Positions 55,309-59,646 of a stretch of 64,000 bases of DNA are shown here, piece after piece. The notes under the pieces are model-generated. The model was not told the origin of the DNA, ran no database searches, and worked only from the letters and a program-made list of their open reading frames with translations. The translations under genes were made by a program, and so were the position numbers. This DNA is from Romanomermis culicivorax (Eukaryota > Nematoda > Enoplea > Mermithida > Mermithidae). Each line of letters begins with the position of its first letter. Position 1 is the first letter of the stretch. Location: NCBI GenBank assembly GCA_963922205.1, contig CAWUHX010000084.1:496001-560000 (forward strand), written 5' to 3'.

Positions 55309-58300
55309 ATGACGACGCTGTCGACTGGATCAACCTCCACGGCCGACGAGCCTCCGCCGTATCGTGAATCGATAAACATCAACGAACGATACGTACGTTG
55401 GGCCGAGCAGCAGCCCCACCAAAACGACCTAAGTTTCGCCTGCGATGGTATTTTCTCATTTTATGCTTTTGCTGCTTATACTTGCATGCTTTTGCTTGGG
55501 ACCCCATGGGTACCTCCCCCATTCTGTAGTTTTGGGCCAGAGCTCCATGGTCAGCCGCCGTGATCCCCGTCATCGTCAAGTTGTGGCCTCCTCAGGCCAT
55601 AACCGGCCGCTGCTTTGATTTCCACATACCACAACTCTCGTTATCTCGCTATCGTAGCCCGATCCAGTTGTCCAAATGCGCCCATCAAGGTGACATCGCC
55701 GCCCAAGCCCACGCCGCCTCAAAGCATGTGTCCCTCTAACAAAGTGATAGCAACACAGCGCCTCCACCCTGGTTCACGTTTACATCATCTTTCAATCCCC
55801 ATGTCCCTCATTCGACTTGGTGTCCCATGTGTCAATGATGAGTATCGCATTCGCTCTTGTTTAGAAAACAACCTCAAACGCCTGACTCGCGTCGCCGATT
55901 TGGAGTCGTGGTACATTTCCATGTACGCGCGACCCCCGAATGTCTTGCCGCCACCGATATTCCTCTCACCCGGAAGTTTGGGGCAGGCCTTGGCCGCCCA
56001 ACCCACACCAAACTTCTGTGGCTATACGCTGGTCGGCTTTGACACCGAATCGATCATGGCCGCCAACATAAAACAGTTCCAGTTCACCGTGCAAATGCCA
56101 GCCGACCCCACGGCGCCTAGCTACCCCCGATATGTTCAACTTGCATTCCCGAATGGCAGGATGTTTGTCTTCGAAACGTTCACCGCCACCCCGGAAGACT
56201 GGACCGCGCTTTTCTCCCTAGTCGACGGCGAACACACCATCGTAGTTTCCTTCGATGGAGCCGACGACTGGGCGGGAATATATGCTCTTCTGGGCACTCA
56301 ATTTTGAACCGATCGGCAAAAGAAAAACAAAGACCCCGTCGTTAAAGCCATTCATTTCGACGCGAACCGCGTTATTCGAAATATCGACATATCCCCATCA
56401 CTGTACGAGTTGGCGCGACGCATTGGCTTCCTTCCGGAAAAATGCACGCTTAAAGCAACAGTTTCCGCCATGTGGGCGCTGGACGTTTCAAAGCTCACGC
56501 TACGCTTCCCGGGAGCCCTACGCTTTTTCAACAACCCGACAACGTCGTTCTTGCAATCCGACGTTCTGGCCTACGCGGCCCTCGACGCCTATTATCCGTT
56601 GCTATTGTTTTTGGCCTTTGGTCGTTACAGCTTCATCCCCGAGGTCTACAACGCCCCCGCGTTGTTTCCCCACGACTCGTTGGACGCTGCCGAAATCGAC
56701 CACCTCGCCGAATACGTTATCACCACCTTTCACAACGTCGCGCTGTCGGATGTCTTGCCCCCCGACTACGCCAACCGAATATATCCGACGACATCGCAAG
56801 TGGCCTTACCCGCAATAATGCGAGACGAAGTTCTTTTGGCTTATAAATTTTTTATGTATGATTGCACATCGTCCGACCACGGTCGGTCTTTTTGTTTAGG
56901 TACGGTTCCCAACAGCTTCCGGGACGTCAAACCCTTGACGGGAACAACTCACCCGAAGCTCCTCCCCGTTCCAAAAGTGCCGAAGAAAAAGAAAAAGAAA
57001 CAAAAGGACAAATGGAACAAATCACCGGACGTTTCCGATGACAAAGATCCGGCTCTCAAACCACGATCTGTTTTCGACGATCCCAAACGCCTTGAAGCAG
57101 CCGTCACGTCGGCCATGAAGAGCAACCTCACCGATCGGCTTCTCGACTTCCTCAACTTTCCGCTTTCGCCGATATATAAGTTGGCCGTCCGCGATCGTAT
57201 GCCATACAACGACCCCAATTTACCGCCGCTACCTCACGAAGTTGACGATCTTTGGACAGAACGCGTAGCCGCTGACCAACCCCTACGCGAGCGCACCTAT
57301 AACGGTACTCATTATCGTTATCACCCTTCCACCATCCTTAATTTTTTACAGGTGGACGGAGACTGGTTCCGAAAGCTAACGTCTTTTATGCCCTTAGCCG
57401 CGCTCCTTGCGTCACCGTGTTCCGCCGCAGAATATGCCTTCGTCAACGATGTCCTACTTCGCCACGCTCAATCAATGACACCAGACATACGCGCCGCGTT
57501 TTACGAGTGCATGTGGTACCGCAGTGACGGCAACCCCAATTCGCTTCTTACGAATTGGATGAACCGTATCCCGGAACGCGAACCCAGTTTCTCTAGCGAC
57601 CCCGGCACGTATATTTGCAATCAATTTGCGTTACGCCCGATTGTGTTCAACGAAGACTTCCACATGGAAACGTCGGTCGAAGAAATTGAAATCGATGAAC
57701 ACAACTATACGGCCAATCCGCACAGCCGTTTCCATTTCTATTCAACGTTCATTGCGCTCATCGACTTCCAAAACCGCTTTTTGTTCCCCCCGCCGGTGTA
57801 TGTGTACCCCATGCCGACTACGGCTTCGGTGCAAACGCTCACCGCCGAGGAACTTCTCGACCGCCCTATCGATGTCGAAGTTGAACCCGCCGACGACGAA
57901 CTACTCGATACGCCAATCTTCGACCTCAACATAGCGAAGCTGCCGCCATCAACAGACGCGTCGGCCCTTCCTATAACCGCCGCGCCCTCCGACATAACCG
58001 CAACCGCCACCCAAATCAACGACTTTTTGAAACTGATGCTCGAAGAAATTTCCAATATCGCCCCGACTCCGATGGACGAATCTACTCCCGTCCAACCCCC
58101 CGCGATTGATTCCGAAACGATGACGTCAGAACAAATGTTGACCGATATACCGGAAGAAAGCACGGTGGATCAATCCACGTCTATGGATGTCGCCCCTATC
58201 GAACCCGCCGCTACGATACCGACCACGGCACCCGCCGTGGATCCACGAAAATATTTGGCAACGCCGGCAGCCTTGCCGGGGCCTCCGATCATTGCTACTG

Positions 58301-59646
58301 TTGCCGCAGCCAGGTATAGTGCTCCCGTACGTTTTTCGCAACAGATTATTTCAGCTACCCAATGGGACGCCTTGGCCGCAGCACTTGCCGCGTATCATTT
58401 TCCGCCACCCCCGCCCGGTATGTTGTTTCCCGAACACCAGTGGAAAGATTTCCCTGCAGCTCTGAAAGACGAGATACAACGAATTTTGTTGCCTCCACCG
58501 ACGTTGATCGCCCCCGCCCCGCAAGTCACTCAAACGGCTCCTGCGATGGCCCAACCCATCGTGCAACCACGGGCTCCATTACCGCCGCCGGTAACATCGC
58601 AACCGCAACCAATTCGGCAACCGCCGCAGGCAGCGATTCTAGTGCCGCCGATGGCGCCTGTGGATGTTCAAACCCCACAGGCACCCAGCACGTCCGTGCC
58701 GGCTCTAGATCGCTACGGTAATCCTATCCGAAGACCCGGCCGGTATGAGCACTCAGCAAAGCGAAAACAACATCTCCAGGAAGAATCGGCGTACCGCAAA
58801 TCCCACAAAACACGAACAACGGACGAACCGAGTACGCGGCGTACGCCGCCACCCAGCACTTCGCGTGCTGAGCGCGGCCGCACGCCCAGCGAACGCACAA
58901 CTCGACGCCGCGAACAACGCGAGAAACAGAGGGCCCGCAAAGAAGCTGAACGCTCTTCGCACGCCACGTCAACGCTGAAACCCAAACACGACTCCTCCAA
59001 AACAGCAGCGCCGGCAACGAAACCGCCGCCTGCTCACCAACCCGATAGCCACCGTTCACGCCACGAGTCTCACTCTCGTGATGATCGCCACCGTAAAGAA
59101 ACAAAACAAACTCCATCAACCGGCAGGGATAGTCGCCAACACGAACGCCGCGATGACGCACCGCCGCATCGTACGCAAAGTGAACAAACACGCAAGGTAC
59201 ATACGACCGGTTTTTACGAAGAGGCACATCGCCATCAGTTTCGCCGGTCACCGCCCAAGTTGACGGACTTTATCAGCCCGTTGCATAGAGACACGGAGAT
59301 CCAACGACGTCTGGAGGCCTTGAAAAACCCGCCAAAAGATGAATTCAAAGTTCCGCTTCCACCGCCTCCCATGGACGTGGAACCCGCAACACCATCGATT
59401 CCGCCTACGGTAACGTCGCAGCCGTCTACGACTCCGACATCGGCCACATCGACTACGGTAACCCACACCACGTCGCTGCCGCCTACGGCCCCGGCGTCGG
59501 CTCTGGTTACTGCGTTCAAACAGCCGCCGGTGATCATCGCCACTAAGCCGGTTCTTGGAGTTCCTCTGCCACCAAGTCCCGCTCCAGTCATTAAACCCCG
59601 GTTGCCTAGCGAGGCCACACATTTGCCAAATTACACACGATTCTGA
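55309..59646 (+). CDS. Accessory protein with WRN/RNase D-like DEDDy exonuclease signature
   Basis: I propose exon 1 at 55309-55447 (MTTLSTGSTSTADEPPPYRE, with a PPPY motif), an intron with GT at 55448 and AG at 55656-55657, and exon 2 from 55658; the phases match. The exonuclease signature is LVGFDTESI (motif I, near 56030), VVSFDGADDWAGIYALLG (motif II, near 56245), and YAALDAYYPLLL (motif III, near 56572), spaced as in WRN-type DEDDy 3'-5' exonucleases. A TGA at 56305-56307 lies between motifs II and III; the same frame continues to 59646. The rest is a Lys-rich linker, a helical middle and a Pro/Arg/Ser-rich tail. Such enzymes remove nucleotides from 3' ends; a role in reverse transcription or host-defence evasion is speculation. 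Confidence 0.65.

What the first reader, a model, noticed from the sequence alone, without database searches (positions are those of the whole stretch)
55309..59646. An LTR retrotransposon that carries a predicted DEDDy 3'-5' exonuclease
Downstream of integrase in a young Ty3/Gypsy element, one frame has three blocks in the right order and spacing for a WRN/RNase D-type exonuclease: FDTES, VSFDGADDW, and YAALDAYY. The residues match the DEDDy catalytic pattern, including the Tyr four residues before the last Asp. I know of no standard Ty3/Gypsy accessory gene of this type. It could be a captured host exonuclease that trims cDNA ends, removes primers or counters host nucleic-acid defences; these roles are inference.
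Basis: partly seen in the sequence, partly recalled or inferred. Interest (0 to 1): 0.88.

Follow-up and report, generated by a model that had tools for sequence, protein, structure and literature searches.

The report
Worm retrotransposon with its own exonuclease
A family of jumping genes in a mosquito-killing roundworm carries a gene for an enzyme that probably chews nucleic acids from one end, and the pattern of mutations between copies shows that the protein was kept by selection, so it probably does something useful for the jumping gene.

Summary
The finding holds. The window matches the Romanomermis culicivorax v2 assembly. A Ty3/gypsy element (47352-61538; 593-bp LTRs, 7 mismatches; TSD TGCT) carries, downstream of integrase, an ORF3 with a DEDDy 3'-5' exonuclease domain. 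The window copy is broken: an in-frame TGA (56305-56307) lies between blocks II and III. In 32 of 39 other copies all three blocks share one open frame; each DEDDy residue is kept in 36-39 of 39. Exon 1 (ATG 55309) and exon 2 are separated by a 417-nt GT-AG intron that 2 of 39 copies lack. Pfam misses this family, but related ORF3 families in the same genome link it stepwise to PF01612, and their joint profile finds a MUT-7 homolog and WRN in the PDB. Integrase lies just upstream of ORF3 in three of these other families. Variants shared between copies are mostly synonymous in ORF3 but not in the intron, so the protein was under purifying selection. LTR elements with a DEDDy ORF3 are already known from bdelloid rotifers (Rodriguez 2017), so the kind is known; the nematode, multi-family, selected version looks new. 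Function is inferred: an RNA 3'-end nuclease acting in trans, perhaps against host small RNAs.

The parts
47352..47944 (+). 5' LTR, 593 bp
   Evidence: 4-bp direct repeat TGCT at 47348-47351 and 61539-61542
47848..50394 (+). gag-position ORF, 848 aa
   Evidence: no Pfam hit, so gag by position only
50578..52800 (+). protease and reverse transcriptase ORF
   Evidence: Pfam Asp_protease_2 1.2e-7, RVT_1 1e-31
52924..54798 (+). RNase H and integrase ORF; separate from the RT ORF in this copy
   Evidence: Pfam RT_RNaseH 2.2e-26, Integrase_H2C2 1.7e-18, rve 4.8e-12
55309..55447 (+). ORF3 exon 1, MTTLSTGS..., contains PPPY
   Evidence: ATG in 39 of 39 copies; junction seen in two intron-lacking copies
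55448..55864 (+). intron of ORF3, GT-AG, 417 nt
   Evidence: absent from 2 of 39 copies; no amino-acid constraint
55865..59646 (+). ORF3 exon 2: exonuclease domain, then a long low-complexity tail; TGA at 56305-56307 in this copy
56038..56052 (+). exo I block FDTES: Asp 56041, Glu 56047
   Evidence: Asp 39 of 39, Glu 38 of 39 copies; invariant across families
56245..56271 (+). exo II block VSFDGADDW: Asp 56266 by alignment
   Evidence: Asp 38 of 39 copies; invariant across families
56572..56595 (+). exo III block YAALDAYY: Tyr 56572, Asp 56584
   Evidence: Tyr 39 of 39; Asp 36 of 39, the other 3 Glu; Asp invariant, Tyr nearly invariant across families
59746..60402 (+). further ORF of 218 aa, function unknown
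   Evidence: no Pfam hit; a similar stretch ends R. culicivorax protein P0005 (by eye)
60932..60945 (+). polypurine tract
   Evidence: sequence beside the 3' LTR
60946..61538 (+). 3' LTR, 593 bp
   Evidence: 586 of 593 identical to the 5' LTR

Best explanation
ORF3 is an element-encoded DEDDy 3'-5' exonuclease (WRN / MUT-7 / RNase D type) with a long tail, encoded downstream of pol in an intron-containing gene and kept because it helps the element propagate. Shown: the domain by sequence, the conserved catalytic set, the intron, purifying selection, and related ORF3s in several families of the same genome. Inferred: that it is catalytically active, that it is made as a separate protein, and that it acts on RNA 3' ends in trans. 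My favoured role (about 0.4, given an active enzyme) is to trim or destroy host silencing RNAs; processing of the element's own RNA or cDNA ends is nearly as likely. The confidence given is for the maintained, active exonuclease, not for the substrate.
For: Catalytic residues in 36-39 of 39 copies and invariant across five families. Profile chain A-B 98.4%, AB-E 97.0%, ABE-CD 91.9%, against at most 4.6% in 200 shuffles and at most 1.0% for four control proteins. PF01612 over the cut-off in families C and E. Joint profile finds MUT-7 homolog 3e-5 and WRN 5.5e-4 in the PDB. Shared variants in the exo domain 65 synonymous: 16 nonsynonymous against 52:100 for singletons, p 1.4e-11; intron p 0.81. 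Integrase upstream of ORF3 in families A, B, C, E.
Against: Family A alone has no exonuclease hit in Pfam or NCBIfam and no clear profile link to C, D, CD or E. coli RNase D (8.2, 1.5, 5.2, 2.5%). A+B+E without C and D give only one weak PDB hit, E 0.81. Three of 39 copies have Glu for the last Asp; family D has Ser for the Tyr. No fold, no activity and no expression data. The stretch after the exo domain is stop-free in the mapped frame in only 16 of 40 rows.
Confidence: 0.7

Rival explanations
1. The exonuclease works inside the replication cycle: it trims 3' ends of the element's RNA, of the tRNA primer or of cDNA before integration, rather than acting on host RNAs.
For: 3'-end processing of element RNA is the role proposed for the rotifer ORF3 (PMC5408684). 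ORF3 similarity follows integrase similarity in order, as for a part of the core machinery.
Against: ORF3 lies outside the pol ORFs and is less conserved than integrase: 24% against 51% identity between families A and B.
Confidence: 0.3
2. A catalytically dead exonuclease fold is used only to bind RNA, as described for Maelstrom and EXD1.
For: Precedent cited in PMC5408684. Family D lacks the Tyr; 3 of 39 family A copies have Glu for the last Asp.
Against: D, E, D and D are invariant in 17 of 17 aligned domains although overall identity falls to 16%; a binding-only fold would not need exactly these.
Confidence: 0.12
3. ORF3 is an env-like or structural protein and the exonuclease domain is a vestige.
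For: ORF3 stands in the env position downstream of integrase.
Against: No env family hit; exo domain variants are at least as constrained as the rest of ORF3 (shared nonsynonymous/synonymous 0.25 against 0.47 and 0.34). No membrane-segment or signal-peptide prediction was run.
Confidence: 0.05
4. The motifs are a chance resemblance in an unrelated protein.
For: No exonuclease hit in Pfam or NCBIfam for family A.
Against: Profile chain with shuffle and reversal controls, invariant catalytic columns, PDB profile hits.
Confidence: 0.02

Closest known systems
Juno and Vesta LTR retrotransposons of bdelloid rotifers with a DEDDy ORF3 (Rodriguez, Kenefick and Arkhipova 2017, PMC5408684)
   Same: LTR retrotransposon with PR-RT-RH-IN and, downstream, an ORF3 of the DEDDy exonuclease type; rotifer ORF3s are described as expressed from spliced messages.
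   Different: Rotifer elements carry a dUTPase between PR and RT (none hit here); their DEDD is DEED, here the last residue is Asp in 36 of 39; nematode host; here the domain is followed by a long tail. Sequences were not compared directly.
Athena / Terminon Penelope-like elements with DEDDy ORFs (PMC5408684; PMC6431247 passages)
   Same: A retroelement carrying a DEDDy ORF.
   Different: Not LTR elements, no integrase; rotifer telomeres.
Cellular WRN exonuclease, MUT-7 homolog, EXD2, RNase D
   Same: Same exo I-III motifs; WRN and a MUT-7 homolog are the best PDB sequence matches.
   Different: Similarity is remote; here the domain is element-borne, tailed, and below Pfam detection in family A.

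Membership tests
DEDDy 3'-5' exonuclease (PF01612 group) | exo I Asp-x-Glu, exo II Asp, exo III Tyr-x3-Asp | tested here: met
   family D has Ser for the Tyr
DEDDy 3'-5' exonuclease (PF01612 group) | score over the PF01612 gathering cut-off (23.6 bits) | tested here: not met
   Window family A: no hit; the A-like UniRef protein P0003 scores 12.5. Relatives: E 31.8, C 51.2 and 27.1 over; D 21.6, B 21.1 just under
DEDDy 3'-5' exonuclease (PF01612 group) | remote homology to known members | tested here: met
   through families B, E, C and D; not by family A alone
DEDDy 3'-5' exonuclease (PF01612 group) | RNase H-like exonuclease fold | not tested
   structure job interrupted, then tool switched off
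DEDDy 3'-5' exonuclease (PF01612 group) | metal-dependent 3'-5' activity | not testable with these tools
   needs a biochemical assay
Ty3/gypsy LTR retrotransposon | LTRs with target-site duplication and PR-RT-RH-IN order | tested here: met
Bdelloid DEDDy ORF3 lineage (Juno/Vesta) | ORF3 sequence related to the rotifer ORF3s | not tested
   rotifer sequences not held; three protein searches returned only R. culicivorax, with limited sensitivity and, a capped candidate list
Bdelloid DEDDy ORF3 lineage (Juno/Vesta) | dUTPase between PR and RT | tested here: not met
   no dUTPase hit at E up to 10 in the PR-RT ORF
env-bearing LTR element | ORF3 is a membrane fusion glycoprotein | tested here: inconclusive
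   no Pfam env hit; no membrane prediction run

The most novel reading that the evidence does not exclude
An old lineage of Ty3/gypsy elements in mermithid nematodes uses its own DEDDy exonuclease as a silencing suppressor that destroys the RdRP/Dicer small RNAs made against it.
Probability: 0.25. Interest if true: 0.88.

Novelty: new variant of a known kind. Interest (0 to 1): 0.62.

Why it matters
DEDDy ORF3s in LTR elements were described in bdelloid rotifers, where copies are few; the published variation test there was on env-like and GDSL-like ORF3s and found near-neutral variation (PMC5408684). Here many copies and several families in one animal genome show selection on the ORF3 protein with the catalytic set kept. 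That makes 'what does an element gain from a 3'-5' exonuclease' testable, in a nematode clade whose reported transposon silencing uses small RNAs. It also matters for annotation: of 119 PF01612 places in this genome I read 38, and 36 of those look like transposon ORF3s.

Tried and rejected
Chance motifs: rejected. Pfam and NCBIfam on family A: no exonuclease hit; the best was DUF4350, 16.3 bits against a cut-off of 30.4. PDB searches with the window pieces or one open copy: nothing relevant. E. coli RNase D as a one-sequence profile: no link, at most 6.6% with any family profile. Relatives in IMG/VR: 21 stretches matched a pattern, none confirmed. BLASTP of the 218-aa ORF against three B and C ORF3 pieces: nothing. 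Papers: in searches I saw no listed title or abstract that reports an exonuclease ORF in nematode LTR elements; the library is open-access only, listings are partial, and most of the papers were not opened. One search was seen as a listing only and is not used.

Full report
Host and element. The window lies in a genome of 359,112,060 bases in 595 contigs. This matches the Romanomermis culicivorax v2 assembly, 359.1 Mb in 595 scaffolds (PMC10879605, passages), and the five proteins found by three protein searches are all from R. culicivorax. The element spans 47352-61538, with 593-bp LTRs (7 mismatches), a 4-bp repeat TGCT on both sides, and a polypurine tract beside the 3' LTR. Pfam finds protease and RT in one ORF, and RNase H and integrase in the next. 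Pol is split by a stop, and ORF3 has a TGA at 56305-56307, so the window copy is not intact. A DNA search with 55800-57000 gave 669 candidates and scored 40, at 92-100% identity. I fetched the 39 other than the window.

The observation. The blocks start at 56038, 56245 and 56572 in one frame. With patterns that allow the variants seen, all three lie in one open frame in 32 of 39 copies. Residues kept: Asp 56041 in 39 of 39, Glu 56047 in 38, Asp 56266 in 38, Tyr 56572 in 39, Asp 56584 in 36, with Glu in the other 3. Mapped onto window columns (window included), 28 of 40 rows are stop-free over 55867-56900, but only 16 of 40 over 56902-59640, so many copies are decayed further on.

An intron. 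Two copies (L043, L044) lack a 417-nt stretch that fits a GT-AG intron at 55448-55864. Each has pol sequence of the RNase H-integrase ORF upstream (94.6% and 93.9% to the element); only 1.25 kb was read. So a spliced message that still contained pol was probably reverse transcribed. The two are 92.7% identical to each other; I cannot say whether they arose independently. The intron is stop-free in the ORF3 frame in 28 of 38 rows that have it (a composition shuffle gives 1% without a stop), yet its variants show no amino-acid constraint. That is unexplained.

Is it an exonuclease? Family A alone has no exonuclease hit in Pfam or NCBIfam. A UniRef relative scores 12.5 bits, E 0.13, against PF01612. 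A six-frame PF01612 search of the genome listed 119 places, 95 marked over the cut-off by my count; the window is not among them. I read 38 of the 119 (L048-L070, L076-L090). By eye 36 belong to ORF3 families B, C, D, E or one A/B-like form; two (L080, L086) do not and may be host exons. Family B matches family A over 305 aa at 24% identity, E 1e-25. Profiles were built from 32 A, 6 B, 8 C, 1 D and 1 E domains. hhalign gives A-B 98.4%, A-E 68-79%, AB-E 97.0% and ABE-CD 91.9% (E 7e-7). AB-E runs in register through exo I, II and III; ABE-CD covers exo II and III only. Weak or absent: A-C 8.2%, A-D 1.5%, A-CD 5.2%, AB-C 35%, ABE-D 3.3%, A-RNase D 2.5%. Controls: window RT, IN, gag and ORF4 give at most 1.0%; 100 shuffles of CD at most 4.6%, 100 of E at most 1.5%, reversed profiles 0.1%. 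PF01612 by family: E 31.8 bits, C 51.2 and 27.1, over the cut-off of 23.6; D 21.6 and B 21.1 under it. A joint profile of 17 domains lists 14 PDB sequences at E up to 1, three of them below 0.001: a MUT-7 homolog (3e-5) and two WRN (5.5e-4). Twelve of the 14 bear names of DEDD-type exonucleases or relatives, one is an uncharacterized protein (recalled as RNase D-like), one a Mediator subunit. C and D alone find WRN first, 9.1e-8. A, B and E alone give one weak hit, the MUT-7 homolog at E 0.81. In the 17-row alignment the invariant columns are D72, E74, D147, L208, A250 and D253; Y249 is nearly so, with Ser in family D.

The gene sits in several elements. Integrase upstream of ORF3 was read in A (window), B (L049), C (L048 by Pfam; L050 and L077 by eye) and E (L073 with L060). 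D was not checked. Integrase identity to the window is 51% for B, 41% for E, 25-28% for C. ORF3 similarity falls in the same order, so the exonuclease has probably stayed with pol since before A, B and E split. Whether C and D acquired it separately is open.

Selection. Among 40 rows (window plus 39), two-allele sites were counted. Exo domain: shared variants (minor allele in 4 or more rows) 65 synonymous: 16 nonsynonymous, singletons 52:100, p 1.4e-11. Middle part 110:52 against 85:215; C-terminal part 62:21 against 27:103, where 108 sites were set aside as ambiguous (15 and 29 in the other parts). Reading the same DNA out of frame does not give this pattern, nor does the intron, 9:20 against 21:54, p 0.81. 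Exon 1 is too short to judge, shared 4:4. dN/dS among five B domains is 0.16-0.48. In C it is 0.04-0.11 between diverged lineages (dS saturated in many pairs, one undefined) and 0.46-0.62 among three close copies. B and C domains were picked with open frames, which biases those values down; family A copies were picked by DNA similarity alone.

What it does. The evidence supports a maintained and probably active exonuclease encoded apart from pol. The substrate is inferred. ORF3 is less conserved than integrase and lies outside pol, which leans towards a trans-acting role. In clade I/II nematodes transposon-directed small RNAs are reported to come from an RdRP/Dicer pathway tied to DNA methylation; the data are from Trichinella, and R. 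culicivorax is said to have the methylation machinery (PMC4323106, passages). A 3'-5' exonuclease against such RNAs would make sense. Processing of the element's own RNA 3' ends, as proposed for rotifers (PMC5408684), is nearly as likely.

What is known. Bdelloid Juno and Vesta elements carry DEDDy ORF3s, acquired at least twice, and Athena/Terminons carry related ORFs (PMC5408684, parts 1-3 of 5; PMC6431247 and PMC5718144, passages). So the kind is known. What looks new, as far as the listings of searches show, is the nematode occurrence, the number of families, the divergence beyond Pfam and the selection signal.

Noticed in passing
window 2296-7223: Another Ty3-like element in which a 644-aa ORF (3222-5156) seems to place an env-like stretch with a membrane-like segment upstream of, and fused to, an aspartic protease, before RT and integrase (by eye).
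   Followed up: no
window 17411-30806: Looks like a Maverick/Polinton: integrase with chromodomain-like end, packaging-ATPase-like, capsid-like and PolB-like ORFs (by eye).
   Followed up: no
window 34861-35586: A non-LTR-type reverse transcriptase fragment on the minus strand (by eye).
   Followed up: no
window 55448-55864: The ORF3 intron is stop-free in the ORF3 frame in 28 of 38 rows although its variants show no amino-acid constraint.
   Followed up: partly
window 55309-55447: ORF3 exon 1 holds PPPY, a motif recalled from viral late domains; each of its residues is kept in 36-39 of 39 copies.
   Followed up: partly
genome G000, 119 places: PF01612 domains are very numerous in this genome and most of those read are transposon ORF3s, not host genes (36 of 38 read).
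   Followed up: partly
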